DNA of 64,000 nt from Calonectria ilicicola (taxonomy: Eukaryota; Ascomycota; Sordariomycetes; Hypocreales; Nectriaceae), in assembly GCA_020809705.1 (NCBI GenBank), contig CP085829.1, forward strand, positions 6,634,001-6,698,000. The letters are read 5' to 3'. The translations under genes were made by a program, and so were the position numbers. Shown here one piece after another: positions 12,605 to 58,574 of the stretch. The notes under the pieces were generated by a model that was not told the origin of the DNA, ran no database searches, and saw only the letters and a list, made by a program, of their open reading frames with translations. Numbering within the stretch: the stretch's first letter is position 1; every line of letters starts with the position of its first letter.

Positions 12605-13927
12605 ATGGTCCCCACCCACCTCAATTACCTCGTCTTCTTGTGGCCCTCCCTGGCATGCGCATCGTACCTGCAAGATCTTCCAGGGTCCTTTGATCACAGC
12701 CCCGCAACATGGGCTTACATCTCATACGAAAACCCATCCGTAGCGGTTCTTCAAGGCTCTTTCAACCGCTCCGCATTGGATGCTTCATTTGAGGGCAGCA
12801 GTAGCGATCCAAACCTAACAGCTACGTACGCTACAATTAACCACCCTATTGGACAAATCTAACGATTCCTAATTAAAGAAACGAGTTCTTGAATACTACT
12901 GATTTCATCGCTTACGATGAAAAGTTCCTCGAGCTGATTGGGCCGGATGCGCGTGTTAAGCACGTTCAGCATCTGGCCTATCAAACTCACGAAGCACCAT
13001 GCTACAACCCCAAAACGAAGCAACTGTTTTTCGTCGAATGGGGTCCGCCTAGTGGAGACAATGGCACTCACACTTGGCAATATCTCCTCGACACAAAGAA
13101 CAACACGCTGCGCAAAATCGAAACGACACCTCCAACCATCAATGCTCACGGTTGTGTCGTTTACAAAGACATGATGTACGTAGTGACTGACGGTGGCCAC
13201 AACGAAACCGGAAACCTCGTTCAAATCGACCCGACCACTCTTCAAAAGACAGTATTGCTAAACAATTACTATCAACAACCATTTATGGGCTTCAATGATC
13301 TCGATATTGACTCCAACGGGGATTTTTGGCTTACAGACTCCAAATCCGCCTATGTCAGTTCCCCTTCATCGTATGTTTCATGCGGCTAACCGATGAAATC
13401 AGGGACGTGACTTGATCCCATTTTACCCACCAACTAATCCCACAGTATACATGGTTAATAGAACTACGATGCGCCCAAAAGCCGTGCATCTTACGACCGG
13501 AAATGCAAACGGTGTAGCATGCGGGCTATCAGCCAATGGTCACAATGTTTTGTACCTTCCCGACACTGGAGTATCAGAATTCAAGCCCGTTTCAAGAAAG
13601 AATCCATACGGGAACCGAGCTCTATTCGCTTACGATGTCTCCAATCAAGGCGGCGTGCTGACGAATGCTCGGTTGCTCAACAACCCGATCTCCTATTTTT
13701 ATGACGGCATCCGGGTCTCTAGAAACGGGTGGATATTTGCTGGCGCTGGTGACGGTCTAGATGTGATAGATCCCGCGACTGGATTAACTCTTGGCACAAT
13801 TCGTGTCGGAGGTGGGGAGAATCTGGCAGTAAGTGTTGCCTTTGGGGAGCACGAACTCTGGATAGTGGGCAGAGGAGGCGTATGGCATGTATCTGGGATC
13901 AAAGAGCGGCTAGACCGACGCTGGTGA
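12605..13927 (+). CDS. SMP-30/gluconolactonase-like secreted lactonohydrolase
   Basis: Exons 12605-12825, 12879-13353 and 13403-13927 give 406 residues. The second intron carries a GCTAAC branch site. A cleavable signal peptide (LNYLVFLWPSLACA) suggests secretion. Six-bladed beta-propeller signatures of the SMP-30/gluconolactonase family are present: APCYNPKTKQLFFVEWG, HGCVVYKD, GFNDLDIDSNGDFWLTDS (the calcium-binding Asn/Asp strand), NGVACGLSANGHNVLYLPDTG, and DGIRVSRNGWIFAGAGDGLDVIDP. Fungal relatives include aldonate/D-pantolactone hydrolases that open lactone rings with a bound Ca2+. It is divergent from the P450, so a monooxygenase and a lactonase may act in sequence. A possible further splice at the C-terminal TGGTGA would leave only a 23-bp intron and was not used. 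Confidence 0.88.
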
Positions 13928-15411: not shown

Positions 15412-17622
15412 GGCTTTGAATTGAATTGCTACTTTGTCCTTAGGAGGATGAAGCTGGCGAGATTGATTACGGATCTCGAGCGCGCCCTGTAGAGTCGAAA
15501 AAGATAGGCGGGTGGACACGGTTGACAAATTCAAAGCGTCCAGAACCAATCAATCTCGTTATTAACGCCACCTTGAGCACTCCACACGCGCCACACACAC
15601 ATTTATATTTGCGCATATACACGATGCGAAACAGATCAATTGAGCATGACCAAAGACGTAAAACCACTACAAAGTTCAGTATTGAAAAGGGAAATGTCCT
15701 TTAAAAAAAAAACCATCCAAAAAGTCCATGTCAATCAAGGTAGCACTAAAAACACGCCACAATGTGATTCAGGACAAGACCCACTCGCAGCTCCATTGTA
15801 ATCCCGCGCCGCCGCGTCATTACAGACGATGCAATTGAAAGCACGACAACCAAAAAGGCAACATTTTACCACATTTAAATATCATCTCTATAAGCAATGA
15901 AATTTAGCATCACGTGTCGCAATTCCATATGTTTGTGTACTTTTGTAGATGACGCAATCCACGCGTCGCCCCCAACCGTGATACCAAAATGCATACGATG
16001 CCACTGAGGCACAAGGCCACTATGCGAGAGGAACCTAGTGCATTGCGGCCACCTCGGATCATCATCTTTCACATCTTCCGCGTATCAAGAGCCAATCGTC
16101 TTCAATCCCAACGCCCAGAATACGAAAATTAGGAGCCCGACACAAACTCTAGTTAATCTGCTTTAATGTCTTTCTTACGCCACTCTATATTAAGTACACA
16201 CGAGTTTCCAAAGTAAACAGTGGTGCATTAAAAAATAGAGAATATAATTATACAATATTTCATTACCGAATTCTTCATCTTGCACATTTTGTATATCATA
16301 GAATTGGTTCGTCCACCCTGGTCTAATTCATAATGGGTCTGACCACTCCGCTATCGGAGCGTAATAAGCAGAGCGCAACATGTCACTAGAACACCCGCCC
16401 AAAAAGTGGAAAATAAAAAAGAGTTGGTTATTTTCTATATAAAACTAATCAATTGATGTCAATGAGCTATTGGATTCCAGCGCTGGAGTTAGTTGCCTTT
16501 TTTTTTTTTCCTGTGGTGAGAAAACTTGACCTCTGAACCCGACTTTTCCAATGGAGCATGTCCGATCCTACATGTCTTCAACTATGACTAAGCGGGTTCG
16601 GATAGATCTACCCTGGTATTCGTTATAATTGCATCATAAAGTAAAAAAGAATACAATGCGAATATTAAATGAGAAAAAAAGGAGCTAACCAGGTTTTGAA
16701 GGATTCAGAACGTCTGGATAGAATCTAGTGCAGCTGGCTATAGGTTAGGTCAACTGTTGCTTTGGACGCAGCATCTTCACTGGCCAATCAAGTGGGCGCT
16801 TGACTTGATGGGACGGGACACTGGGGTATTGACCACCTTCTAGCCCGAGCAGGGGGAGGGATAATTTTCAGCTTTCTTGCCCCTCCATAAGATTGTAAAT
16901 ATGCATATGAGCCTAATTTTTAAAATGCGCATCTAGCTAGATTTTATACTGCAAAACGATGCTATAAACCTCCCACATCCGTAATTGCTATTGGCTGCCG
17001 TTTTCCAACCATCACTCAACTAACCCGACCAATGCAAAACTTGGCTCTATCTTTGCACCGGTTTATCAGAGTTTCGTCCCAACAACACGGGAAATGCCAT
17101 TATAGTTTTGTCGCTCACCGATGGTCCATGACGGATGAGGCAGGTGACGCAGAACAATCATGCTCCCCGCCCGACCGCCAAGACATTTGTATGCAACTAC
17201 GACAATGAACAACAAGGCCGAGCTGCCTGAAAGGGCTACTGTGACTCCAGCTGATTCAGCATCGGTGAGATATGACGACACGCCAATGCTGAATTTCGAA
17301 TGCCCCGCCAAACTGGAGCGTAAGCTTAAACATTTGGGAAGGGCAGCTCAGTCCCAAGGTGGAATAGACTTATGGTCATCGATGCGTGATCTACGGATAC
17401 ATCTCCACTCCTCCTCCAGCGAAGCAAGTCTTGGCTACCCAGCCGTCAAGATAGCAACATGACCCAACATTATGGTAACATAACGCCGCAGCCTACAGCT
17501 ATTTATACGCCGCAGGTCCCCGACGGGCCTTTTTAATCGACCTCTCCTCTCCCTATCTCAATAGAGCGTTGGTTTGATCTTGGGGACAAGTCTGGGGCTG
17601 CTCTGGCTCTGTCAACATAAAA
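15412..17622. other. Intergenic, about 2.2 kb
   Basis: Contains the upstream region of the FAD oxidoreductase on the left and of the M28 peptidase on the right. An AT-rich stretch lies near 16140-16460 and a T run near 16498-16510. A TATA-like TATTTATAC at about 17500 lies some 120 bp before the peptidase ATG. A 100-codon frame at 17160-17462 has no family features. Confidence 0.45.
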
Positions 17623-26551: not shown

Positions 26552-28094
26552 TTATCCGCCCGTGTTAAACACATCCGGGGCGGCTTCTGCCTCAGCAGCC
26601 AACCCTTCAATACTCCTTCTCAGCATGTAGGGATCCTCAGCAAATCCCTTTTGCCACGTCCTTCCTTCATATTCTGACTCAATTGGCTTCCTCCCCGTCG
26701 CTTGGATTTCCTTGGAGCGTCTCTCTACAGCTCCCCACACTCGCAGAATGTTTTCACCCGCTAGTAATCGGACCTGTGCGTCGGTCGCACCCCGCTGCAT
26801 TACAAACTCGAGCAGGCTGGGGTACTTGGAGACATCCTCAAGGCCGATGGGCGCAAAGGACATGCCAAAGAAATCACTCCCAATCCCCACACACTCCCAC
26901 CCGCAGACCTCTGCAATATGGAAAATATGATCGACAACATCGTGTATCGTTACCTGTTTTGGATTCTTAATATTAAGAAATGCATTCAAGAATACGACCA
27001 TGACGATGCCACCATTTTGTTTAAGCAAGCGCAAAACATCGTCTGGAACGTTGCGAAGATGTGGTTGCATTCCATAGGCTCCCGAATGAGAGAATATGAC
27101 AGGGGCTTCGGCAACACCTAGCACATCTCGCATTGTTTGGTGTGAGACGTGTGAAAGATCAACCATCATCCCAATTCGGTTCATTTCTCTCACAGCGTCC
27201 CTGCCAAGGCTAGTCAAGCCTGTATCCGAGGCCCCATTTGCAACAGTAGATGCCGCCATAGCAAACGCATTATCGCAATTATGTGTCAGGGTTAAATACC
27301 GCGCCCCAAGCCCGTACATCTGACGTATGCTGCCAATGCTACCGCCGACTTGATGACCGCCCTCGATGCCAATCATACTAGCAATGCGGCCCGCCTTGAA
27401 TGCTTGCCGCACGCATTTGGATGTGTCGCAGTATTCAAGATCTTTTGGATGCTCGCGAATAAACCGGCGAGTAACGTCTATTTGCTCCAGCGTGTCTCGA
27501 ACGATCCACTTGTCACTTAATTAGTATGATCATGCCACATTTTCAACCATTTCTTGAAAGGAGACTTACAGATGGGTCTTCGAAGTGCTTTTGATTCGCG
27601 TCACAGTCCACAAACACGCTCCAGAACTGACCACCAACCATTCCTTGTCTCATCCTCACCAAGTCTGTATGACCCAGCAGTCGATTCTTGAAGTCAAACT
27701 CGTCATCGTAGATGCGATTATGTAGCTCAAGGCGCAGCAGCAAAGGAAAATCGTTGTGGCCATCAATCAATCTTAGCAGCAGTCAATACAACATCTAGCG
27801 TCGCATTGGTGCATTTCAAACTCACGGTGTAGTTTTCAGAATGCGCTTCGTACGCTCAACGTAGTCTGTATCCCCGCAGGGCTGTTCCCATGGCCATACA
27901 AATGCGAGGGGAGCAAGCAAGACGGCGCACACAGCGGCAATTATGGGTGGACGGGCCCGCATCCACCATGCTACCGTTGGTGATTGGGTACGAGGGACGA
28001 GGGCTTGCCTGTCTGCAGAACTTTGGGTGGTACTAGTGGACTCACCACTAGCCCTCTCATGGGAAGACTCTACACTGGCATCCATTCCTGCCAT
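26552..28094 (-). CDS. Membrane dipeptidase (renal dipeptidase, M19), signal-anchored
   Basis: Exons 27826-28094, 27570-27771 and 26552-27508 give 475 residues. A Ser/Thr-rich cytosolic N-terminus of about 40 residues precedes one TM helix (PPIIAAVCAVLLAPLAFVW), so the enzyme is a type II membrane protein with a luminal or external catalytic domain. M19 binuclear zinc ligands are visible: DGHNDFP (His, Asp), GIEGGH (bridging Glu), DLSHVS (His) and FSHSG (His). Family members hydrolyse dipeptides, including Cys-Gly from glutathione breakdown. In sulfur-containing metabolite clusters (for example GliJ of gliotoxin) this class trims a glutathione adduct. An ACC-synthase-like gene lies 3 kb away, but no glutathione transferase or NRPS is present here. 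Confidence 0.92.
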
Positions 28095-28483: not shown

Positions 28484-29656
28484 CTAACTGGTGGTCTTGA
28501 ATCCAGCTCTCAGAATCATCTGGAACAATTCTACATCCTTCCTAGCGTCCGATGCGCTGCTCTTGGGAATTTCCCCCCGTGTCGCACACTCGTAAAACTC
28601 TAGAAGCTCAACGGTGTATGGATCCTCATACGTCTTACGAATCTTCCTTTCTTGGAAGCCAGCTTCTCCTACTTTCTCGCGAACCGTCAGAGTGACTGGC
28701 AGTCCCTTCACATACGGTGAATCAAATTCGACGCGAATAATCTTCTCGGGCGAATATACCTCGATATGAGCATCGAATTGTGGAACACCACAGAGTCCGG
28801 ATTCGTAAGTGACTGGAAATCCATTATACTGGAAGAGGACACTGAAGATGCCAGGAAGAGTAAGGACGGCACCCGAGACTGTTTGGGGCATGCCAATAAT
28901 CTCTCTCATTGCCGAAAGATCATGTGTTCCGAGCCTATCAATGTCAGGTTTTCGAAGTGTAATTCTGGAAGAGAATACTCACGCTCCAAGTACGCGAAGC
29001 ATCCTCTTGGATTCCGGCGTTGCATGCACGCCAAACTCCTTCTCTAAAGCTTGTTTGAAAATATCCTCCTCTCTTGAGACTCTATCCTGAGAGTCTGCAT
29101 CGGAAAAGTCATTAAATCGTTGTGGGAATGTTCCAGATTGTGCCACAAAGGTTGAATTGGGTCCAATGATATCACGGACCCTTGCGTAAATGATTTTTTC
29201 CATGCCTCCAACTTCTTTAACAGCATCAAGAAAAGCTGGAGCGTAGCGTCGCATGGTTCCGACAAAAACGTTTCCTTTAGAGGTCTTTTCTGCCTCAATG
29301 AGGGCGTCAATGTCTCGAAAGCATGTCGCAGCGGGTTTCTCCACCAGACAGTATTTGTCGTACTTTAAAGCAAGGATTCCGTGCTCAACGTGGTACGCAT
29401 CAGCGTTGGCAATGAGGACGACATCTACGTCATCAGAGGCGCAGAGTTGTTCCGCGTCGCGGGTAGTTTTCGGTGTTTGCCCAGGAATCTTTTGAGCGCA
29501 GTGACTAAGTGATTGTTCCGAAATATCACAAAGATATGTAATTTTGAATCGGTGAGCGAGGAAGTTTAAGTTGGGTATGTGAGCGACTTGAGTGATCTCT
29601 CCACAACCGATGATGCCGACTCGCAGAATAAGGCTTGTGGCACTTGGGTCTGTCAT
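28484..29656 (-). CDS. Gfo/Idh/MocA NAD(P)-dependent oxidoreductase (1)
   Basis: Exons 28983-29656 and 28484-28934 with a 49-bp intron give 374 residues, the usual family length. The N-terminal Rossmann fold starts LRVGIIGCGEITQVAHIPNL (GxGxxx). The conserved VEKPAATC holds the EKP lysine that contacts substrate and cofactor. VLGALGTHDLSAMREIIG carries the HDL-type catalytic helix (His, Asp). The C-terminal alpha/beta substrate domain is complete. Family members oxidise secondary alcohols of sugars, inositols or their amino derivatives with NAD(P)+. It is transcribed divergently from a second family member 372 bp away, with tandem CGG-N7-CGG elements between them. Confidence 0.93.
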
Positions 29657-30028
29657 TGTTGTTGGCTATACGTCAAAATGTAGTATTAATGAATGGAAGC
29701 GAACAAGTGAATTGTGTTTGATGATGCCATGGAGAGGCCGTCCATCCTCATATTTATGAGCCATCTGTATGCGTTGTATGATCTCCGACCGGGGAATAGC
29801 GGAATCGGGGAGTAGCGGATGCTGGTTTTGTCTCCACTATCACCGCCATCCTTCAGCGCTCCACCAGGATGCGTAGGGATGATTACAGGGCAGTCGTCTC
29901 CGCTATCATCTAACAAAGGTGAGTGTCTATGTTCACTTAAGAGCCACCTGTTCCGCACTACAATAACTCCTCTTCAAGCCCGCGTTTTTATTTCACCTTC
30001 ATTTTATTTATGATAACATTTTTCATCT
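29657..30028. promoter_or_regulatory. Divergent promoter between the two Gfo/Idh/MocA genes
   Basis: 372 bp shared promoter with two tandem copies of the cluster element (29790-29819) and a related 8-bp core TCCGCTAT at 29899-29906. Confidence 0.65.
29790..29819 (+). promoter_or_regulatory. Tandem CGGGGARTAGCGGA elements
   Basis: CGGGGAATAGCGGA at 29790-29803 and CGGGGAGTAGCGGA at 29806-29819, 16 bp start to start. Each is a direct CGG-N7-CGG. They lie 135-163 bp from the leftward start and 210-239 bp from the rightward start. The same 14-mer recurs at two other promoters of this cluster. Confidence 0.75.
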
Positions 30029-31081
30029 ATGGCTGAAGAACTCCCCTCTCTCCGCTGGGGCATTATTGCCACTGGCCTCATTTCGTCCTGGTTCGTTGCT
30101 GATTTGACGTTGGACAGGCCTGATAAAAAGGCAAACCACATCATCCAAGCGATAGGCGCGTCGTCTCTTGATAAGGGCCAACTATTCGTCAAAAATCACC
30201 TTTCGGGGAAATCTCCTGCCATCTATGGAACATATGAGGGCGTCTATCAGGACCTAAACGTTGATATTGTCTACATTGGAACGCCTAATGCTTTCCACAA
30301 ACAAAACTGCCTCGATGCTATTCGTGCAGGGAAACATGTCTTGTGCGAAAAGACATTTACTCTCAACGAATCCGAGGCCAACGAAGTCTTCCAAGAAGCC
30401 GATAAACACGGCGTGTTCGTGATGGAGGCCATGTGGACACGCTTTTTTCCCTTGGTTCAAAAGTTCCACCGCCTCATTCATAGCGATAAAATCATCGGCA
30501 ATGTGTCGCGTGTATTTTGTGATTTCGCCATGAACATGAATATTGCCTCTCTACCGTCAACATCACGCCTCAGGAACCCAAGCCTTGGCGCTGGGAGTCT
30601 TTTGGATGTCGGTATCTACAGCTTAACTTGGGCAATCTTGGCCTTGCAACCAGGAAACCAACAAAATGAGCCCAAAGTAGTCGCCACCCAAAGCCTCTTT
30701 GAGGGCATTGACATCGCCACCACGGTAGTACTTAGCTATCCAAATGGAGAACAAGCCATAGCTACATCATCAACCATGGCAAAAACTCCACCTTCCTTTT
30801 GCAGAGTTGAAGGCAGCAAAGGTACCATAGTTGTTGATGGATTCACAGCATCTGTTCCTGCAACCTTTACAGTTCACCTAAATGGCCAAGATCCCGTCAA
30901 GTATGAATTTGAACGTCCTGGGAAGGGATTCTACTGGGAGGCGGATGCTGTAGCGATAGACATTGCAGCAGTGAGGGTTCAAAACGAAATAATGCCTTGG
31001 AGCGAGACGCTTCGAATGATGCGACTGCTGGATGAGATTCGGCGTCAAGGTGGAGCCAGATTCCCACAAGATGCAAATTAG
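30029..31081 (+). CDS. Gfo/Idh/MocA oxidoreductase (2), dihydrodiol/xylose dehydrogenase-like
   Basis: Single exon, 350 residues. The Rossmann start is LRWGIIATGLISSWFV (GxxxTGxI), followed by VDIVYIGTPNAFHKQ and GKHVLCEKTFTLNE. The canonical EKP is EKT here, a conservative deviation at a normally Pro position. EAMWTRFFP and GAGSLLDVGIYSLTWA are hallmarks of the dimeric dihydrodiol dehydrogenase/NADP-D-xylose 1-dehydrogenase branch. It probably oxidises a cyclic sugar or diol with NADP+ in the cytosol. It is divergent from Gfo/Idh (1), shares the tandem regulatory elements, and is convergent with the PLP enzyme. The two paralogs are from different branches, so two distinct oxidations are more likely than redundancy. 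Confidence 0.94.
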   Translation: MAEELPSLRWGIIATGLISSWFVADLTLDRPDKKANHIIQAIGASSLDKGQLFVKNHLSGKSPAIYGTYEGVYQDLNVDIVYIGTPNAFHKQNCLDAIRAGKHVLCEKTFTLNESEANEVFQEADKHGVFVMEAMWTRFFPLVQKFHRLIHSDKIIGNVSRVFCDFAMNMNIASLPSTSRLRNPSLGAGSLLDVGIYSLTWAILALQPGNQQNEPKVVATQSLFEGIDIATTVVLSYPNGEQAIATSSTMAKTPPSFCRVEGSKGTIVVDGFTASVPATFTVHLNGQDPVKYEFERPGKGFYWEADAVAIDIAAVRVQNEIMPWSETLRMMRLLDEIRRQGGARFPQDAN

Positions 31082-31323
31082 ATCAGGTGGATAATCCAGT
31101 TCATTTACAGGAACCAGATTGACTTTCTAGAATCAGCCAGGCCCAAACGTGTCCCCGTACGATGTTATAATTTTGACTGAATGATGTGATCGCAATTGGT
31201 GTCATGGAAAAGTTTGCAAACAAGCCTATCATAATAGATTGCAACTTTTAATACAATGCGCCAAATTTGATGCATCTATTCTCAAAGAAGTGAATTTAGT
31301 TCTGCTGATCCCAATGTATTCAA

Positions 31324-32622
31324 TTATAGCTTAACTGGCATCTTATTGTTCAATATCGCAGACACCCTGTGCAATCCAGTCTCCAAAAGAATCTCATCTT
31401 GAGCAAAAACGATCCGGAACCACCCAGGGAATTCGGACCCAAAATCCTTTCCAGCCGAGATATATACTTTGTTCTTTAGGAATAAGCTAATCAAGGTGTC
31501 ATCCAATTCTTCATCAGTAACCTCGGGGTTGTTCTTTCTCCAAACGCTTCCAAGACCCACCCATAGGAAGAAAGTTGCGTTCGTTCTCTGCGCATAGGGA
31601 ATACCATTGCTTTTCGCCCAGTTCACCACAAATCTGTGCCTTTCGGAAAGTCTTTGTTTGTTTTTCGAAATAAAACCATCAGTCCACTTTTCATCATCGA
31701 GAACATTGGCCGCAATGTGGTCAGATGCAGATGAAGGAGAGCTGTAAAGAGCCACAGGCACCAAAGCAGCATGTAGTGAGGGGTTAGATTGAGATATGAT
31801 AGCGCCGATTCGAAGCCCGTTAGCACCAAAATCCTTTGACATGCCCCAGATGGTATGGATTTGAGCACTAGGAATGATTCCCGTCGTATCAAGCGACAGA
31901 CAAGACTCAAAAGGTGCTGGCGTGTCTTGGTCGACCCTGTTCTCCCAAACAGACAGTGCGTAAATCTCATCACTAATGAAGTGAAGATTGTGTCTCGCAC
32001 AAAGCTTCATTAAACCTATCAATGCAGTACGAGGATAACATCTTCCCAGAGGATTGTGTGGGTTTGAAATGATGAGACCAGCAACACGTTGACCATTCCT
32101 AATAGCGGACTTGAGCGCAGCTTCATAATAAGAGACGGATTCTAAACCCAGGGGGTCGGCGCCGTGGAAGCTGACTGGCACAACCTTGCAACCAGTCCGC
32201 AAAATTAAATCGGGAACAAAGGTATTATAGTAAGGCCGCCCCAGCAGAAACGCATCGCCAGGATTTGCTACAGCCCAAGCAAGGTGTTCCACAGCTGAGC
32301 TGGCACCGTTGGTGATGCTGAAATGGGCTGGTTCCAGTGGCAGCATGGGCTTCAGATGCCTGTTGAGGAACTTGGCCATGGATGTCTTGAGTCTCTTCGT
32401 CCCAGACATGCCATCACCATATGTGAAGGCATGGTTTGACAGTCGGAAGTGTGTATGCAAATGCGTTGAGAGTTCTTCGGCCATGAGCGTGTTTTCCGCT
32501 ACCCCCAATGTTGCAAACCCTGATGGGTTGTGAATAGGGTCATATAAGTCACCCACAGCCTTCCATATGTGCAATTCCTGGCTTGCCTTCTGTGCCGATT
32601 GGCCACGGGTAGATAGCGCCAT
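31324..32622 (-). CDS. PLP-dependent enzyme, ACC synthase-like (aminotransferase class I/II)
   Basis: Single exon, 432 residues. Fold-type I motifs are FATLGVAENTLM near the N-terminus, SITNGASSAVEHLAW, ISNPHNPLGRCYP (substrate and PLP Asn), FISDEIYALSVW (Asp and Tyr on the pyridine ring), and WGMSKDFGANGLRIG with the Schiff-base Lys. The sequence around it is that of the ACC-synthase-like group. In fungi this group includes C-S lyase-type enzymes such as GliI as well as transaminases; ACC synthesis itself is not implied. The start is the only in-frame ATG fitting the family. It is divergent from the Zn2Cys6 gene, across a region with one CGG-N7-CGG element. Confidence 0.92.
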   Translation of the reverse strand: MALSTRGQSAQKASQELHIWKAVGDLYDPIHNPSGFATLGVAENTLMAEELSTHLHTHFRLSNHAFTYGDGMSGTKRLKTSMAKFLNRHLKPMLPLEPAHFSITNGASSAVEHLAWAVANPGDAFLLGRPYYNTFVPDLILRTGCKVVPVSFHGADPLGLESVSYYEAALKSAIRNGQRVAGLIISNPHNPLGRCYPRTALIGLMKLCARHNLHFISDEIYALSVWENRVDQDTPAPFESCLSLDTTGIIPSAQIHTIWGMSKDFGANGLRIGAIISQSNPSLHAALVPVALYSSPSSASDHIAANVLDDEKWTDGFISKNKQRLSERHRFVVNWAKSNGIPYAQRTNATFFLWVGLGSVWRKNNPEVTDEELDDTLISLFLKNKVYISAGKDFGSEFPGWFRIVFAQDEILLETGLHRVSAILNNKMPVKL

Positions 32623-33360
32623 GTCATGAGGAATATTTGAGCACCGATAATATAAAAAAAATCACAAAGGTGAGCACAGGCTTAGCCCTTGAAGTTGCTT
32701 TCAGATATAGCAGATGAATCTTATACAAAGTGAGAAATGAGCTATGTGACTTCATGAGATCCAGTCCCTCCACTTACGTCTTGTTGTCGTGACCAATTTC
32801 GCCTTCAAAAGTTGTCTCCCTCTAAATTCCTTCCCCACCAAAGTACGTAACGACTGCCTTACGTACAACGCAGCCAAAACGCCGCGCTTTCGTAAGTCTT
32901 GCAAACAAATATCCAACTTGATGCATTGGGGAATTTTCAAAAATTTATCCGCAATTTAGTGTATGAATATAAATACTGACGCGCCTTTTGAGTTGTGCTG
33001 TTTCGATAAGTTCGCGAATGTGTCAGATTCTCCCCAACACGATTTATCTTGTGACTACATGAGGCTAAGAACCCCAAGCCGCCTGCAATGGTCATATTTG
33101 CTAGCTTTTTAGGTGATGCAACCGCATCTATCTATGTTGATTTTATAAATTTACTTATTTTGAGATAATTGAAAGTTTCAGTAAATAAAATAGTCGTCAT
33201 CCGAATTTGTAGTGATACTCTTCAGGTTATTCATCCCCGCACAGCATGGCGATCGGGCATTTATTTCTCCGCAAAGCCGACTCTTGTTCCGCTATTCCCC
33301 GCTCGTGCAAGCCAATAAACATGACGACGCTCAATACGCAGTAGAGGACGCCCCAAATAC
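32623..33360. promoter_or_regulatory. Divergent promoter of PLP enzyme and Zn2Cys6 gene
   Basis: 738 bp. Carries one copy of the cluster element at 33288-33301, 60-73 bp before the factor's ATG, which suggests autoregulation. Confidence 0.6.
33288..33301 (-). promoter_or_regulatory. CGGGGAATAGCGGA element at the regulator's promoter
   Basis: Written TCCGCTATTCCCCG on the plus strand. Identical on the minus strand to the copy at 29790-29803. Confidence 0.75.
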
Positions 33361-35449
33361 ATGATGCCGCCTGGAGAAGATGAACACGGCTCGGGTCATA
33401 AAAGACCTCGGGTTGCATCCTTGTATCAACGCAAGAGGGCCGTGGCAGCTTGCCAACCTTGCCGAGTCAGAAAGACAAAGTGCGACAACGTGAGGCCGAA
33501 GTGTGGCTTCTGTACTCGGCATGGCGCCCAATGCACTTATGCAGACTCTGGAAACGACCATTCCTCGTAAGTTGATTCTTTTAGGCGGTTGAGATTCTTG
33601 CTAATCAGCTCGTCGTGTGATGCAGATTTGATCCGGCAAGCCTGGCCATCTTAGAGCGCCTTAATCACGTTGTCTCGCTGCTGGAAAAAGACCAGTCAAA
33701 TTCTCCACAAAACCCTACCCATTTGCAGACCTCCATAGCAGGCCCCTCATCTTTCAATCAGCCTCCAGACTTGGAGGACCTAGACCACGAAGATGATATG
33801 TTAGAAGAGACCCCAAACTTCCCCGCCGCCCAGAATAACTGTGAGGGCATCTTACAATGGCCTGTATTCCAAGAGTATATGCTGGGTGTGGATTCATTCG
33901 TAATGGAAGTAGGGGATGACGGACCGTCAAACTCGACAGAAAGTAGACCAGGAATAAGCATCCTTGGCCGGGGAATCCAAGAGGAAGACTTTGCCCCGCT
34001 GTCGCAAAAGTTCCTGGCATACGTGCATACAAAAAATCCAATTCTTGACGTAACAGAATTTTCAGGTTTCGTGAGAGACGCTGCTGAAACTGGGCTGAGA
34101 TGGGATGGCCCTTCGTGTCTTGTGGTAAGCCACCGATGCTGTTGTGTCACTATCCGAGTCTCTGGTGATCACAATTGCTAATCAGAAGGTTCCCTTCACA
34201 GCTCATCGCTTGCGCGCTCGGATGCCTTGCCACACCTTTTCGAGCCGAAGACAAGGATGATGACACATTAGCACGATCAACAACAATGCTGATAAACAGA
34301 CAAACGAGTGAAGTGTACTATCTGGCTGCCAAAAAGCGGCTGGGTCTAATGCGACCCTCTCTACTCTACATCCAATGCCTGTTCTTTTGCGGCGTTTTTG
34401 AAATGTACCGCATAGATGCTCTTCAAGCCTGGCATTACTTCAATCTAGCTTGTGTTCAATTCCGCAATCTTCTTTGGAGACAACGCCATTTCTCATCTGG
34501 GGATTTGACAGAATTGCCTCGTCAACAACAACGCATGGAACAGAGACTTTATTGGTCCTGCATGAAATCTGAATGGTAATTGGTATTTCCACAAGTTATA
34601 GGTATATCGTTTTGCTAATGAGCCTGGCGACATAGTGAGTTAAGATGTGAGATTCCCGTCCCAGCAAGCGGGATAAATCGGTTCGGGTTTCCAAAGATAT
34701 TTCCGTCGCCTCCAAATGAGCTTTCCTCGCCACCATCTAATCAAGCAGATGCCGAAAGCCCTTCAGACTTTATAAACCCAGAGGAGGAAAGAAGTTGGTT
34801 CTATTACCTGGCTGAGATTTCATACCGACGTATGATGAACAGGGCCTTTGCATCTCTAGCTAAGCAGGGAGAATCCGGTTGGGGTCAGCGATTTGAAGAG
34901 AATCTTCAAAAACTGGAAACTCTGAATGAACAACTTGACGCCTGGTATGTCTTCCTGAGTTCTCAAGTTCCGAATATTGATTAACTATTTAATCTAAGGT
35001 GTTCTCATATTCCGCCGCAAATCACTTTGACTGAAGGCGATGGTTTTAATAATGAATTCGCTCACTTCATTCATGGCCGAGCGATATCATTAAGGGAATG
35101 GATGCACCGGCCATTTTTATACTATGTCATCCACCAACCTCTCGATGACCAGTTCATTTCACAAGCCCTACCCCTAGCAGAGAAATGTCTCGAGCTTTGT
35201 GTTCAATCCCAGTTGAGAATTCACCCATTCCATCGCCATCACGGAACATGGTATATTGCTCGCACGTCAATGACTCGTGCCCTTTTACTTATTGCAGCAG
35301 CGAAAAGTGGCAGGTTGAGCCTCCCTTGCAACTGGAAAGTAGCTTTGAACTCATCCATGAAAGTTCTAGAGTTTTGGGCCGAGGAATCCCCAGATTTGAA
35401 GAGATCAATTGACATTCTGAGTCGTTTGGTGCCGGACTTTACCGAGTAG
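33361..35449 (+). CDS. Zn2Cys6 transcription factor, likely cluster regulator (5 exons)
   Basis: Exons 33361-33566, 33626-34124, 34202-34575, 34636-34944 and 34999-35449 give 612 residues. The zinc cluster is complete: Cys31, Cys34, Cys41, Cys48, Cys51, Cys58 (CQPCRVRKTKCDNVRPKCGFC). A short leucine-type coiled coil (LAILERLNHVVSLLEK) in exon 2 would allow the dimer that a CGG-N7-CGG site needs. An acidic stretch (DLEDLDHEDD) follows. The C-terminal domain (LIACALGCLATPF, MEQRLYWSCMKSE) is of the fungal_trans type. The element 60 bp upstream of its own ATG, and copies at the flanking enzyme and transporter promoters, make it the obvious candidate binder; this is inference. It is convergent with the sugar permease. 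Confidence 0.92.
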
Positions 35450-35683
35450 CTCTTAGATAGTTGTCTGAACCTCTTGAACCAAGGGCTTCAGAGTATTTTA
35501 ATGAGTCAAATACATTCCAATACTGTGATGTACTGGTTACTTCCAGCCAGAGATGATTTAATATTCTGTCGTGGATTTATCAAACAGAGTATTACTTGAA
35601 CATCCTTGAACCGACACCGCAAGATTGCAATATCGCTACCATCGCACACACAAATATTATTCGACTAATTCGTTCAATACTTG

Positions 35684-37409
35684 TCAATTCCCTGCCTTCT
35701 CCTCTTTGGTCTTGCCCTCCGCTTCGTCCACTTGTGCATCGTTACACATTTCCAACTTGCTATCAGTCATTGCGGATTTTCCCTCAAAGATTTCCGCAAT
35801 CTCTTCAAGAGTGTGTCCCTTTGTTTCAGGGAACAATAACCATACCAAGCCCAGAAGAAATGCCAGAATGCAGCAAAATACTATGTAGTACTTCCACTGA
35901 ATATTCTTCATGGCAATCGGATTCACCTGGTTTCCGAAGATGAGACCCGCATAGGCCGACATATAGCTAACTGTCAATCCACGACTCCGCAAAGTGTACG
36001 GGAAGATCTCAACAGGGTACGCCTGTAATAACGGAGTCCATGCTGTATCGTAGAAGAAATAGGTCACAAAGATGAACCCTACGACTGCTCTTCCAATTGC
36101 TTCACCTCCGTTCTGAACGAAGTGGGCTGTGAGAGCAGTCCATATGATGTAGCTACACAGCATCCCACCAGTAGAGGTTAAGAACAGGGTACGCCGTCCT
36201 AGACGGTCAACCATTAATGCTCCCAGGAATGTTGCAACCAGCCAGTTGAAAATCTGCAACAAGCCATTGATGAGGGTTTGATCCTTGACCTCAGTGATAC
36301 CAATAGTATCAAGAACAAGTGTGAGGTAATAGCTCAATAAACCTATGCCATTACATTGGCTAAACCAGCCCACAATCATGGCGATGAGAGATCGACGTCG
36401 ATTGGCCGGCGTGCGGATCAAGTCGAACCATGAGCCGGATAAAACCTCGGCCTCGAGGGCAAGAGTCTCTTGGACTTCGCGAATCTCAAATCCGACGAGT
36501 GGTGACTCGAGATCTCCACCTGCGTGATGTTGTGCAAATACTTTGCGAGCCTTCTCGACCTTTCCTTTGGACACAAGATATCTGGGAGATTCGGGTACAA
36601 AGAAGACACCTAGTAGTTGGATCAAAGGGACAGCACCTTGGAGAAGCGAGGGAATACGCCAACTCCAGGAATTATTTATCTTAAATGTTCCATAAGTTGA
36701 CCAGGCTGCAAAAATAGCACCAAAATACTTTCCACAAAGTCAGACATGGTGTAATCGAGTGGCTTCGAGAGACTACTCACAAAAAACGTGTTATACAGAG
36801 CCGTAACCTTACCTCTTTGGGTTGGATATGCGAGTTCAGCAATTAGGATAGGGCTCGGCTGGCCGATAAAAGTGGTGGAAAAGCCCAGAAGCGCTCTGGC
36901 TGCTAAAAATGTGCCAAAATTGCGGGCCATCCCTTGCATAATGGAGAATCCCACGCAAGCGACCAACCCGAAAAGGATGGGAACCTTGCGGCCAAACCGA
37001 TCGGAGACGAAAGTTACTATTGGAAGAGCCACGGCTTTTCCGAGGGGGTAGACTACATTCATGACTCCCAAAACAGCTCCTTCGGGATTGTTGAAGTATG
37101 TCCGCCATTGAGGGAGGGTCTGAAGCCCGTTCATCATTGATCCTAGATCAGTATCCATTAGCTGAATGCATTGAATTCGGACATTGCCACTTACCATCAT
37201 ATCCAATCGATGCAGAGGACAGCAAGGGGACCAATAGAATTAGATTTAACCTAAGCATGTGCCAAGTACGATACCATGGCTCCGGGTTTGTTGGAAGAGC
37301 CTAGACAAAGGTTGTCAGAATTCCGTATTCGCAATGTAAGAAATTATCAGATACTTACTGCAGCAAGCTTTGAACCAGCTATTGTTGTACTTCCATCTGC
37401 TGGTGCCAT
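35684..37409 (-). CDS. MFS sugar transporter (12 TM), lactose permease-like (1)
   Basis: Exons 37359-37409, 37195-37300, 36781-37142 and 35684-36727 give 520 residues. The third intron uses an acceptor that yields YFGAIFAAWSTYGT, matching the family. Sugar-porter signatures are SDRFGRKVP (loop 2-3), AYPTQRGKVTALYN, PESPRYLVSKGK after TM6, VDRLGRR, and PETKGHTLEEI at the end of TM12. The first exon is just 17 codons. It would import a mono- or disaccharide or a related polyol by proton symport. One CGG-N7-CGG element lies 415 bp upstream, linking it to the oxidoreductase and PLP genes. It resembles the permease at 56.8 kb. Confidence 0.93.
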
Positions 37410-37823
37410 CGTGAGTAACGGATATTATGTAGCAAAGAAATGAAGCAAACGCGCGAGTCGGGATCGACAGTGTCATGGAGGGTTGGCACAAAAGAGACCC
37501 CTCCCATGGTATGAAGGAGGGGCAGAACCTGAATTAATATTCGTATTCATCATACCCTGTTCCCACCTGTCTAAGCGACACAGCCAAGACCATAGTACTC
37601 TAGCACTCACACATAGACATCTTGCAAGGTGTGAGATGTGGAGAACTCGTAGATCGCGTTCCTCTCCCCATGGGGAAGCTCTGTGGCACGTCCAAGGTTG
37701 CATGCGGGGAGGATGAGGTTTTCCATTATCAACAAACCAGGGTCAATTGAGGTTGAATGTAATCCAGCAAATCAGTCTGGCTGGGGAAGAGCGGAGAGTG
37801 GAGAAGTCCCGGCCAACCCCCGT

Positions 37824-37837
37824 TCCGCTACTCCCCG
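37824..37837 (-). promoter_or_regulatory. CGGGGAGTAGCGGA element at the permease promoter
   Basis: Written TCCGCTACTCCCCG on the plus strand. Identical to the copy at 29806-29819. 415 bp upstream of the sugar permease ATG and oriented with that gene. Confidence 0.75.
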
Positions 37838-54682: not shown

Positions 54683-56803
54683 TTTGACGTATCCTCTTCT
54701 TCTCCTCGTCCCGATAAATTTTGTGTATGTCAATACCTCGCAGCTCGTCGAGCTAGTCAGCTATAGCGCTTGTAACTAGATCCTGGCTTGTAAATCGAGC
54801 TATATTAAACCGCGAGAACAGGGCATGAGCTCGGTAGCGAGTCGGCGGGGTGAGGTGCGGGGCTTTGCGGGCGCCGTTGCAACCGGAGAATAAAAGCAGA
54901 GGCGGAGTTCGTCATCCGACTAGATAACAAAATTCTTCGGCGACACGGTCGCAAGTTAATGCGGATCCGACATGATAATAGCCTGGTGTTATTGTCATCC
55001 AATACGTATCGCGCGGGGATTGAGCATCATGGTTCTCTTCATTGAATGAATACGAAGTAGCCCATGATATCCGTTGGAGATTTTCGGCACAAATTCAACT
55101 TTGCCGCCATTGTGCTATTGGTGATGGCGACAATTTCAGTTGTCCGTCATGATGAAGGGTTAATAAAGTCCCTACAAAGATCAATCGGCACAAGGCTATT
55201 TATTAATACGGTTCAAACATTAGTACACTGGACGGCGCCTATGTGTAGTGGGAGTGGGGTTGATCTGAATGGCATACATTTTAAAATCTACGGTAGGGAA
55301 AAAAGGATTGGCTGGACGATTGCAAACTCTAGAGGACCACTTATTTATCATTGGCATTTCAAGAAACACAAAGTCAATTAGGTTCACTCTCGTACGGAAC
55401 TAATTACGTGGCCACGGAAAACTAACTCGCGCTTCGACATGGTAGCACAGGTTCCGCACCCCCTGGTCAATTCATGCGATCCGTCCCCACGAAATATCGT
55501 GTCTGGGGGAGGATGTCTGTTTTGTGGAGCAGGCAACTGGGTCATGTGGGAGCACCGTGGCCCAAAGTCGTATGTGGCTTGCTTAGTTATGAGTCTGTCA
55601 TCCATGAAACGGCGGGGGTTTGTCTCGAATCAGGTTATATCTTCATTGCTTAACACTTTGTTAAGACTAGATAAACCACGGTTTGTGAATATAACACCAA
55701 ATCCACAGACATGTAAATGCTCCATCATCAATGCTAGCCGTAGGGCATCAATAAACTTTGAGTTCCCTTTCAAATAACCTCAAGAGGGTCCGTTGTAGAT
55801 CGGAGCAAATAAACTACGGGAGAGCTACTCGCCCGTCTTCTATCGGCCAATTTCATCGCGTCATGCAGGCAATGAAACTGGGGTTAACGACAGTTTGACC
55901 CCATAATGGGCGCTACGAACTGTATTTTACGGACAGGTCCTCAATAGGGTAGGCCAAGCCGCAGATCCCTGGCATGAACTACATGTTTTCGCTCCACCCA
56001 CCAGGCTCAGCCCCCCAAAAGCTCGTCTCGAGCTTCAGTCAAATGGTTCCACGGGCTCATGGTGATCCATAATTGAGCTTTCCATGGCTCTGGGATAATG
56101 CGGGGATAGCGCGCGCAGAAAACGCGGGGTCTCCAAACTCGTAATCGGTCCGATTGCGGTCCATTCATAACCCCCGTCTAGTTGGCCGACAAGAACAGGT
56201 ATTGGGTGGGACTGCACTGGTCTCCCTTGTTTCGACCTCGTTGTTGATTCCCCTTGTTGGTTCAGCTATAGCCGAGCCCTGAGAACAGCGTTGTGTTGCC
56301 AAGGCGAACCAGCCAGGGGCTCCGCGCTATTAGAATTTTAGCACGAGCTTGCTGGCCCTAGTGGCCCGTCCCGATTCGCCCTCGTTGGGATCTTCCCACT
56401 TTCCGACAAGCCCTTTTCAGAAATGTGTGACGAACAAGCCCCGGTGCCCAGCCAGCTAAACTTGAATCGGGCAACTAGCTGTCATGTCATGATGCTACGG
56501 CTGAGGTCCCGACAGAGCTGTTGGGAGTATCAATCATGTCTTGTGATGAATGGTCCATGCGTATTCCCGTCATACCACGAGTCAGGTTTGACATCTTGGC
56601 ATGGACTCCATGATTTTGTCCTGGTGGCTGGCTTGAGACATTGTAACCCTGGCGGGAAACCTCCGTCGGGCACATTCTTACCAGGGCATTCAACTTAAAG
56701 TGCCAGCAATCTGCCAGCATGACCCCGTTTCTGTTCCGCTTGCTCTCGTCTTTTTACATCCAGACATATTTTGCTTTTACAGCCTTGGTTTCATCTTTCA
56801 ACC
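54683..56803. other. Intergenic, about 2.1 kb
   Basis: Divergent upstream regions of the aldehyde dehydrogenase and the second sugar permease. Frames of about 105-112 codons at 55064-55381 and 55439-55777 show no family features. Confidence 0.45.
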
Positions 56804-58574
56804 ATGGGCAACAAGTCGCATCAGCCGACGGTGAATGAGGCCAAAGCCGTCGGTAACGAACTGGCCGCCGTTCTACCCGACGATGGCCCTTGGTACAAGC
56901 AAAAGCACCTCCTCAACCTCAATTTCTGTATCCTTTCCCTCATCCTGTTCTCCTCAACCAACGGGTATGATGGCAGCGTCATGGGAAATGTCTTGGCCTT
57001 GCCTCAATGGAATGACTTTATGGATACTCCCACAGGCGCCTGGCTGGGATTCATCAACGCCATATACTCTCTAGGCTGTGCAATTGTTTATCCTGCTGCT
57101 GCTTGGATGTGCAACAAGTACGGCCGAAAGCCCGGCATTTGGGTTGGATACTTCTTTCTTGCCCTTGGCGCAGCTCTACAGACTGCCGCCAATAACGACA
57201 TTGCATTCGTTCTTGCTCGACTGTTTCTCGGTTGTGCATCTGGGTTTTTCCTCTCTGTTCCCCTCTTGATTGCTGAAATCGCATACCCTACCCAACGCGG
57301 CATCGCTTCGAGTCTTTACAACTGTGGTTGGTATGTCGGCGCGGTCCTGGCAGCCTGGGTCATCTTTGGAACCAGGGAAATGGATGATTGGTCATGGCGC
57401 TTGCCCTCTCTCCTCCAAGCTGCTGTTCCTCTCATGGCCCTGCCGGGCTTCTTGATGATTAGCGAGTCGCCTCGCTGGCTGGTGTCCGTTGATAGAGTGG
57501 ACGAGGCCCGGAAAATTCTTGCCAAGTACCATGCCGGGGGTGACGAAAACTCCCCATTGGTTACCTTTGAAATAACCGAGATCGAGGCCACGCTCAAAGC
57601 TGAGAAGGAGGCGAACGACTCCGCCTCATGGGCCGACCTCTGGAGCACCCCAGGAAACAGGCACAGACTATTCATCTCTGCTACGCTCGGAACCTTTGCC
57701 CAATGGAGCGGCAATGGGGTCGTCAGCTACTACTTGCCGCTTGTTTTGGTAAGGATTCTCTGATGGTGTTTATTGTATGGTCAATACTAACAGCGAGTGC
57801 GTTGTAGAAATCTGCGGGGATAGAAAGCGTACGAGATCAAACCCTCATTTCAGGCTGCATGCAGATTTGGAACCTGATCTGGGCTTCTGCCGCCGCTTCC
57901 ATGGTAGACAAAGTCGGAAGAAGGTTCTTGTTTATGTCGTCTGTAAGTGCAATTTGAGGCGGTGCTTTGCGCTGTCGCTTTACGCCATTGGGGAAGCATT
58001 GTTAATTGACTTTTGGATCAATAGGGAACCATCATGTTGATCGCTTACATTATCATTACTGGTTTATCTGGAAGTTTTGCCAGCACAGGCAACAGCGCTA
58101 CGGGTACCGCCGTCATTCCCTTCTTATTTATGTAAGTCATTGTCCTTTTGCATGCCTTGACGCACTAGCTGACATTCAATAAGCTACTTTTTGGGTTATG
58201 ACATCGCTTTGACTCCGCTCCTTGTGGCCTATCCAGTTGAGATTTGGCCATACAGACTTCGTGCCAAGGGTCTTTCCGCGGCACTGCTCACTAGTCTTGC
58301 GGCCCTTTTCTTCAACACTTTTATCAACCCCATTGCTCTCGAGGCCATTCAGTGGAAATACTATTTTGTCTTTGTCGCGGTGCTTATTGCCATGTTGATC
58401 ACGGTCTGGTTCTACTACCCCGAAACTAGAGGACGCACTCTCGAGAATATGGCGTATCTCTTTGATGGAGAGGACGCGGTGGCTGGCGGCCTTACTGCTG
58501 AGGATGTTCTGAAGACGGCGAATGTGGAACATGAAGAAGGAGACGGCTACAATGAGAAGGCTGAGGCTAAGTAA
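56804..58574 (+). CDS. MFS sugar transporter (12 TM), lactose permease-like (2)
   Basis: Exons 56804-57748, 57808-57942, 58025-58131 and 58184-58574 give 525 residues from MGNKSHQPT in a good ACCATGG context. Signatures: SSTNGYDGSVMGN after TM1, CNKYGRKPGIW, EIAYPTQRGIASSLYNCGWY, SESPRWLVSVDRVDEARKIL, VDKVGRRF and YPETRGRTLENMAY. It shares the AYPTQRG and YHAGGDxxSPLVxFEI blocks with the permease at 35.7-37.4 kb, so the two are paralogs. It imports a sugar or related compound by proton symport. No CGG-N7-CGG element was found upstream, so it is not part of that regulon. Confidence 0.94.

What the first reader, a model, noticed from the sequence alone, without database searches (positions are those of the whole stretch)
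28484..37837. A 14-bp CGG-N7-CGG element defines a putative uncharacterised sugar-type regulon
CGGGGA[A/G]TAGCGGA occurs exactly four times in 8 kb: 29790-29803, 29806-29819, 33288-33301 (minus) and 37824-37837 (minus). All are in promoters, none in genes, and I found no other full copy in the window. They cover the two Gfo/Idh/MocA genes, the regulator with the divergent PLP gene, and the sugar permease. A 14-mer with one ambiguous base should not recur by chance at this scale. Direct CGG triplets at fixed spacing are a known Zn2Cys6 dimer-site type, and the copy 60 bp upstream of the Zn2Cys6 gene suggests autoregulation. Together, a permease, two dehydrogenases and a PLP enzyme suggest uptake and oxidation/transamination or lyase chemistry on a sugar, inositol or amino-sugar. 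The substrate is unknown.
Basis: partly seen in the sequence, partly recalled or inferred. Interest (0 to 1): 0.9.

Follow-up and report, generated by a model that had tools for sequence, protein, structure and literature searches.

The report
Fungal sugar-gene cluster's own regulatory switch
A short DNA word found only in the switch regions of one fungal gene cluster is very probably the landing site of the cluster's own regulator protein, and some relatives of that regulator have variants of the same word beside other sugar-handling genes, so a set of untested fungal sugar switches can now be checked at the bench.

Summary
CGGGGARTAGCGGA occurs four times in the window and nowhere else in the 69.9 Mb genome; one-mismatch copies elsewhere (24) do not exceed a reversed-pattern control (40). 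All four lie in promoters. Variants, CGGGGA-N4-CGG, recur at four other loci, each beside a paralogue of the cluster's Zn2Cys6 regulator: 8 sites in 90 kb around nine paralogues versus 0.42 expected, several just upstream of the paralogue's start codon; five of the nine loci have none. One locus repeats the module: two Gfo/Idh/MocA genes, regulator, site. Others carry sugar transporters and an arabinofuranosidase. Regulator and first dehydrogenase appear on the same contig in 29 named Ascomycota, by capped listings. The PLP gene is probably a lineage-specific insertion. Best reading: an autoregulated, pathway-specific regulator binds as a dimer to CGG-N7-CGG and switches on uptake plus NAD(P)-dependent oxidation of a sugar or glycoside. 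Substrate and binding are unproven. The CGG-N7-CGG spacing is known from AcuK/AcuM, so this is a new member of a known kind.

The parts
29790..29803 (+). Element copy 1, CGGGGAATAGCGGA, in the gfoA/gfoB divergent promoter
   Evidence: exact match
29806..29819 (+). Element copy 2, CGGGGAGTAGCGGA, starting 16 bp after copy 1 on the same strand
   Evidence: exact match
33288..33301 (-). Element copy 3, CGGGGAATAGCGGA, 59 nt before the regulator's ATG
   Evidence: exact match; gene model
37824..37837 (-). Element copy 4, CGGGGAGTAGCGGA, 414 nt before the permease ATG
   Evidence: exact match; gene model
37782..37795 (+). Possible weak fifth site, TGGGGAAGAGCGGA (two mismatches), opposite strand in the permease promoter
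   Evidence: 0.44 matches with up to two mismatches expected per shuffled window
28484..29656 (-). gfoA: Gfo/Idh/MocA oxidoreductase, 374 aa, one 48-nt intron
   Evidence: splicing; PF01408 E 5e-16; EKP invariant in the 50 homologues aligned; fold of an orthologue
30029..31081 (+). gfoB: Gfo/Idh/MocA oxidoreductase, 350 aa, single exon, nearest solved relative dimeric dihydrodiol dehydrogenase
   Evidence: PF01408 and PF22725; 2o48 E 4e-39
33361..35449 (+). Zn2Cys6 transcription factor, 612 aa, four introns
   Evidence: splicing; Zn_clus and Fungal_trans
35684..37409 (-). Sugar transporter of the major facilitator superfamily, 520 aa, three introns
   Evidence: splicing; Sugar_tr E 7e-85
31324..32622 (-). 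PLP-dependent aminotransferase-fold protein, 432 aa, ACC-synthase-like; probably a lineage-specific insertion, membership in the regulon uncertain
   Evidence: PF00155

Best explanation
The 14-bp element is the binding site of the cluster's own Zn2Cys6 regulator (33361-35449). Two zinc clusters of a dimer read the two CGG triplets, seven bases apart on the same strand; the fixed GGARTAG spacer and the trailing A make the site specific to this one regulator. When an inducer derived from the substrate is present, the dimer activates four transcription units: the regulator itself (positive autoregulation), the divergent gfoA/gfoB pair through two tandem sites, and the sugar permease through one strong and possibly one weak site. 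The proteins take up a sugar or glycoside and oxidise it with NAD(P)-dependent Gfo/Idh/MocA enzymes. The regulator belongs to a subfamily expanded by duplication; some relatives keep the CGGGGA-N4-CGG framework with altered spacer and flank bases and run parallel sugar modules. Shown by sequence: the sites, their exclusivity to the cluster, their promoter positions, the paralogue-linked variants, open gene models. Inferred: binding, activation rather than repression, inducer, substrate, the reactions.
For: Four of four exact genomic copies in promoters of one 8-kb cluster. In 90 kb around nine paralogues of the regulator: 7 matches with up to two mismatches versus 0.70 expected (P 9e-6) and 8 CGGGGA-N4-CGG versus 0.42 (P 2e-8); counted by locus, 4 of 9 (P 5e-4). 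Sites lie 51 and 144 bp (C1:164.8k), 45 bp (C3:6908k), 210 bp (C1:7636k) and 292 bp (C8:977k) before paralogue start codons; 6 of the 7 CGG-N7-CGG sites in the eight 700-bp promoters examined are of the CGGGG type. C8 repeats gfoB, regulator, site, gfoA. C1:7.6M has sites before a Sugar_tr gene and a GH51 arabinofuranosidase. The zinc cluster and following helix are much alike among the listed close homologues (44 of 55 rows had a full six-cysteine motif).
Against: No binding or expression data. DNA of other species could not be read, so promoter conservation across species is untested. Five of nine paralogue loci lack a CGGGGA-N4-CGG site, including C3:6397k, whose regulator gives the best single alignment to ours outside the window; the C11 paralogue has a close DNA-binding domain (27 of 38) but no site, while C8 has a site with a weaker one (19 of 39). 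One CGGGGA-N4-CGG also lies in the window at 17510, away from the cluster. The pattern CGGGGA-N4-CGG was fixed after the mismatch scan, so its P value is somewhat optimistic. Genome-wide the pattern is not enriched. At least nine organisms present in both lists have regulator and gfoA rows with different contig lengths. A separate trans-acting protein could bind the sites.
Confidence: 0.75

Rival explanations
1. The sites are ordinary AcuK/AcuM (AOD2/AOD5) sites: CGG-N7-CGG elements that bring the cluster under the genome-wide switch to gluconeogenic carbon sources, not under the local regulator.
For: AOD2/AOD5 bind CGGN7CGG as a heterodimer and AcuK/AcuM recognise CCGN7CCG (passages only).
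Against: The full 14-mer is confined to this cluster out of 69.9 Mb, whereas a general switch should have sites in many promoters. Variants track paralogues of the local regulator. The local regulator shows no PAS domain in Pfam, which AcuK/AcuM have. The A. nidulans AcuK and AcuM sites quoted in the passages share the spacing but not the CGGGGA start. The genome's own AcuK and AcuM genes were not looked for.
Confidence: 0.08
2. The element family is a remnant of duplicated promoters: copies were carried along when the regulator gene duplicated and are not under selection.
For: The sites cluster beside paralogous genes, which share ancestry.
Against: The paralogues are only about 28-39% identical in protein outside the zinc cluster, so unselected promoter DNA should have lost resemblance; within the window the same 14-mer recurs before three unrelated gene families, which duplication of the regulator cannot explain. 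Flanking promoter DNA was not aligned.
Confidence: 0.04
3. The local regulator binds the sites but as a repressor or a redox sensor, with gfoA or gfoB acting on it as Gal80 acts on Gal4.
For: Gal80, a Gfo/Idh/MocA-fold protein that regulates a Zn2Cys6 activator (its role is recalled), is among the Foldseek matches of the gfoA model (ranks 26, 33, 41 and 46 of the 50 listed), and gfoA and the regulator appear as neighbours in many fungi.
Against: The fold match is family-wide and many enzymes rank higher. The EKP lysine typical of active enzymes is invariant in the 50 gfoA homologues aligned.
Confidence: 0.08

Closest known systems
AcuK/AcuM of Aspergillus nidulans and AOD2/AOD5 of Neurospora crassa
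   Same: Zn2Cys6 proteins reading two directly repeated CGG triplets seven bases apart
   Different: Those have PAS domains and act on gluconeogenesis and alternative oxidase genes; here Pfam shows Fungal_trans and no PAS, and the 14-mer is confined to one cluster
AmyR and InuR of Aspergillus
   Same: Sugar-related Zn2Cys6 regulators on direct CGG repeats
   Different: Their spacing is N8
RhaR of Aspergillus nidulans
   Same: Zn2Cys6 regulator of a plant-sugar pathway; a paralogue locus here sits beside a GH78 rhamnosidase (L044)
   Different: RhaR recognises an inverted CGG-X11-CCG site; no sequence comparison with RhaR was made
Gfo/Idh/MocA sugar oxidoreductases (DgpA, levoglucosan dehydrogenase, NAD-dependent sulfoquinovosidase, 1,5-anhydrofructose reductase)
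   Different: Only 16-19% identical in those alignments; substrate cannot be read from this; the top row is YvaA, a putative oxidoreductase

Membership tests
Zn2Cys6 fungal regulators | Six-cysteine binuclear zinc cluster near the N terminus | tested here: met
   PF00172 E 2e-9; cysteine pattern found at 33451
Zn2Cys6 fungal regulators | Binds CGG-type DNA sites | not testable with these tools
   no binding assay; only sequence association
AcuK/AcuM | Target site CGG-N7-CGG | tested here: met
   spacing of all four copies
AcuK/AcuM | PAS domain in the protein | tested here: not met
   Pfam at E up to 0.001 finds Zn_clus and Fungal_trans only; PAS is stated for AcuK/AcuM
AmyR/InuR | CGG-N8-CGG site | tested here: not met
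   all four copies have N7; N8
RhaR | Inverted CGG-N11-CCG site | tested here: not met
   the site here is a direct repeat with N7; RhaR site
Gfo/Idh/MocA oxidoreductases (gfoA) | N-terminal Rossmann domain PF01408 and EKP lysine | tested here: met
   that EKP is the family's catalytic motif is recalled
Gfo/Idh/MocA oxidoreductases (gfoB) | PF01408, a family C-terminal domain and the catalytic lysine | tested here: met
   PF01408 and PF22725; EKT in place of EKP, lysine kept
DgpA-type glycoside 3-dehydrogenase (gfoA) | Oxidation of a glycoside at C3 | not testable with these tools
   DgpA is the top sequence hit, but other superfamily members score almost the same
ACC synthase (PLP gene) | ACC synthase activity | not testable with these tools
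   ACS7 E 3e-51, SKD lysine kept, but the residue aligned to the tyrosine of the DYHG motif is methionine (my reading; its importance is recalled)

The most novel reading that the evidence does not exclude
The cluster is a fungal module that breaks glycosides by oxidation instead of hydrolysis: a permease imports the intact glycoside, and gfoA with gfoB, like bacterial C3-dehydrogenases and NAD-dependent Gfo/Idh/MocA glycosidases, oxidise the sugar ring, labilise the bond and reduce the product. In sister modules under related regulators the same place is held by classical glycosidases (GH51 with a matching site; GH3 and GH78 without). It is switched by a regulator subfamily whose members have split one ancestral CGGGGA-N4-CGG code into separate, mutually distinct dialects.
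Probability: 0.17. Interest if true: 0.75.

Novelty: new member of a known kind. Interest (0 to 1): 0.5.

Why it matters
To my knowledge (recalled) most fungal Zn2Cys6 proteins have neither a known site nor known targets. Here one regulator, its probable site and targets, and several diverged regulator-site pairs in one genome can be read from sequence alone, giving a ready set for testing how zinc-cluster proteins change their DNA code after duplication. It also points to a widely held, untested fungal pair (regulator plus gfoA) with probable sugar or glycoside chemistry.

Tried and rejected
Dispersed repeat or low-complexity word: rejected, four copies in the genome and no excess of near matches. 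Genome-wide regulon in trans: no support, CGGGGANTWNCGG gives 43 versus 55 in the reversed control and CGGGGA-N4-CGG 334 versus 487; single trans targets cannot be excluded. Membership of the neighbouring dipeptidase-like gene (26552-28094): no match with up to three mismatches in its promoter. The three-mismatch match at 32495-32508 is inside the PLP gene, and the number of matches with up to three mismatches in the window is at chance level. The third gfoA paralogue (C7:4.50M, L048) has no site with up to two mismatches and, by eye, no regulator in 10 kb. C11:122-132k (L049), with a gfoB paralogue and another zinc-cluster gene, has no site either. Looking for the cluster in other collections: viral contigs with P0121 and genome contigs with P0003 gave no relative. 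Ten literature searches for the site, the cluster and the regulator listed no paper that by title or start of abstract describes this regulon; only the listed rows were seen, most subscription journals are not held, and I read only passages of four papers (PMC4245848; PMC5295593; PMC12719309; PMC5468973). Gal80 is not among the 50 rows, which does not exclude it. A second structure job was not used. The permease search in the PDB gave only general sugar and related transporters.

Limits of the counts: the nine paralogue loci were those with similarity outside the zinc cluster; one more weak match of that sort (C11:1987672, E 3e-4) was left out. itself gives lower bounds. In one search the L044 promoter belongs to a neighbouring zinc-cluster gene, because the paralogue's own zinc cluster was not found, and L046 was left out as its start was not found; start codons are in-frame ATGs taken. 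The Poisson and binomial figures treat sites as independent. The shared-contig count was made by eye from the best 120 rows (of 1772; of 231); equal contig length is indirect evidence of linkage. Of the 29 named organisms, 26 have regulator identity of 44% or more and three (Boeremia, Aspergillus karnatakaensis, Saccharata) 35-38%, as have the two unnamed records. The eight close locus-tag pairs include one with JGI-style numbers; other JGI-style tags differ more and need not follow gene order (recalled). Organisms in both lists but on different contigs are Phialemonium, Thozetella, Annulohypoxylon moriforme, Colletotrichum shisoi, Zopfia, Thyridium, and Fusarium fujikuroi, proliferatum and oxysporum, where strains may differ. 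In Colletotrichum higginsianum gfoA and a PLP homologue share a chromosome-sized contig length, which says nothing about adjacency.
Full report
What is there. The 14-mer CGGGGARTAGCGGA is present exactly four times in the window, at the coordinates given, with none in 100 dinucleotide shuffles. In the genome as held (69.9 Mb) it occurs four times, all here. Base composition predicts about 0.9 copies genome-wide, so the genome contains no stray copy and one cluster holds four. Near matches are not in excess: 24 one-mismatch copies elsewhere versus 40 for the reversed pattern, 551 versus 912 with up to two mismatches. A further two-mismatch site lies in the permease promoter.

Genes. I spliced the genes at GT-AG introns where needed: gfoA (374 aa), gfoB (350 aa), a PLP protein (432 aa), a Zn2Cys6 regulator (612 aa) and a sugar transporter (520 aa), all open. 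Pfam gives the families. gfoB is nearest to dimeric dihydrodiol dehydrogenase in the PDB (E 4e-39); gfoA hits the superfamily broadly; the PLP protein is ACC-synthase-like. The nearest protein relatives of gfoA and the regulator are in Thelonectria, Neonectria, Ilyonectria and Dactylonectria, with some Fusarium for gfoA, so the host is probably a member of the Nectriaceae (inference).

Where the sites sit. Two tandem copies lie in the 372-bp gfoA/gfoB divergent promoter, one lies 59 nt before the regulator's ATG in the 738-bp promoter shared with the PLP gene, one lies 414 nt before the permease ATG.

The independent test. The regulator has paralogues in the genome. I fetched 10 kb around nine of them that match outside the zinc cluster and scanned with the window's 14-mer. 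Seven matches with up to two mismatches appeared where 0.70 was expected from the genome density (P 9e-6); for CGGGGA-N4-CGG it was 8 versus 0.42 (P 2e-8), and dinucleotide shuffles of the nine loci gave a mean of 0.55 and a maximum of 3 in 60. The 53.5 kb of the window outside the cluster has no match with up to two mismatches and one CGGGGA-N4-CGG, at 17510. Counted by locus, 4 of 9 carry such a site (P 5e-4) and 5 do not. Two of the seven two-mismatch matches (L044, L046) are not of the CGGGGA-N4-CGG type, and the L044 one lies inside a transporter gene. The sites before start codons are at 51 and 144 bp (C1:164.8k), 45 bp with a looser one at 90 bp (C3:6908k), 210 bp (C1:7636k) and 292 bp (C8:977k); for the window's regulator the same measure gives 72 bp.

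What the sister loci carry. C8:974-979k has gfoB, regulator, site and gfoA, so it repeats the module. C1:156-166k has a site between a Sugar_tr gene, whose exact start I did not determine, and the regulator. C1:7.632-7.650M has a site between a Sugar_tr gene and the regulator, a pair just after the regulator, and a pair before a GH51 arabinofuranosidase. Loci without the site still carry sugar genes: C9 a Sugar_tr and a GH78 rhamnosidase, C6 a Sugar_tr, a GH3 and a gfoB paralogue. So these loci as a group go with sugar and glycoside use; the neighbours at C3:6397k, C3:6908k, C11:3470k and C4 were not scanned with Pfam.

Conservation in other fungi. Only proteins could be read. At least nine organisms in both lists do not match in contig. 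A Fusarium austroafricanum gene model fuses gfoB to the regulator, so gfoB is also a neighbour there. The listed PLP homologues that I compared, in organisms that also have a regulator row, are on contigs of other length, or far away on the same one (Fusarium nematophilum tags 010725 versus 011510). The regulator's zinc cluster and adjoining helix are much alike among close homologues (44 of 55 rows with a full motif).

Mechanism. The evidence fits a pathway-specific, autoregulated Zn2Cys6 dimer on a direct CGG-N7-CGG repeat, with spacer and flank bases giving it specificity. Direct repeats with this spacing are bound by AOD2/AOD5 and AcuK/AcuM, so the geometry is workable; AmyR and InuR use N8 and RhaR an inverted N11 site. 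The regulator is not AcuK or AcuM by domain content. Binding, direction of control, inducer and substrate are inferred.

Verdict.

Noticed in passing
L041 and L047 (C1:7632001-7650000): A five-copy variant dialect, CGGGGA[AGT]TATCGG, runs over 11 kb with a sugar transporter, a regulator paralogue and a GH51 arabinofuranosidase; the pair at C1:7639057 and 7639082 has no obvious target gene.
   Followed up: partly
L043 (C8:971001-981000): Paralogous module gfoB, regulator, site, gfoA, with no PLP gene and no permease recognised by eye in 10 kb.
   Followed up: partly
L044 (C9:415001-425000): Sugar transporter, two zinc-cluster-type regulators and a GH78 rhamnosidase side by side; no CGGGGA-N4-CGG site.
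   Followed up: partly
L045 and L050 (C6:5691001-5711000): Regulator paralogue, sugar transporter, GH3 glycosidase and a gfoB paralogue within 15 kb; no CGGGGA-N4-CGG site.
   Followed up: partly
P0160, P0168, P0169 (Colletotrichum): Database proteins in which part of the regulator is fused to a 2-oxoglutarate/Fe(II) dioxygenase, two of them annotated as ACC oxidase; probably a merged gene model that shows a neighbour gene there. Only P0160 was read.
   Followed up: partly
window 26552-28094 (-): A gene that looks by eye like a membrane dipeptidase lies directly beyond gfoA but has no copy of the element; its family was not tested.
   Followed up: partly
window 12877-13924 (+): Open frames that look by eye like an SMP-30/gluconolactonase, about 15 kb from the cluster; family not tested.
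   Followed up: no
window 56723-57760 (+): A second sugar-transporter-like frame, by eye similar to the cluster's permease; no element with up to three mismatches nearby.
   Followed up: no
window 17510 (-): A lone CGGGGA-N4-CGG (CGGGGACCTGCGG) away from the cluster; probably chance.
   Followed up: no
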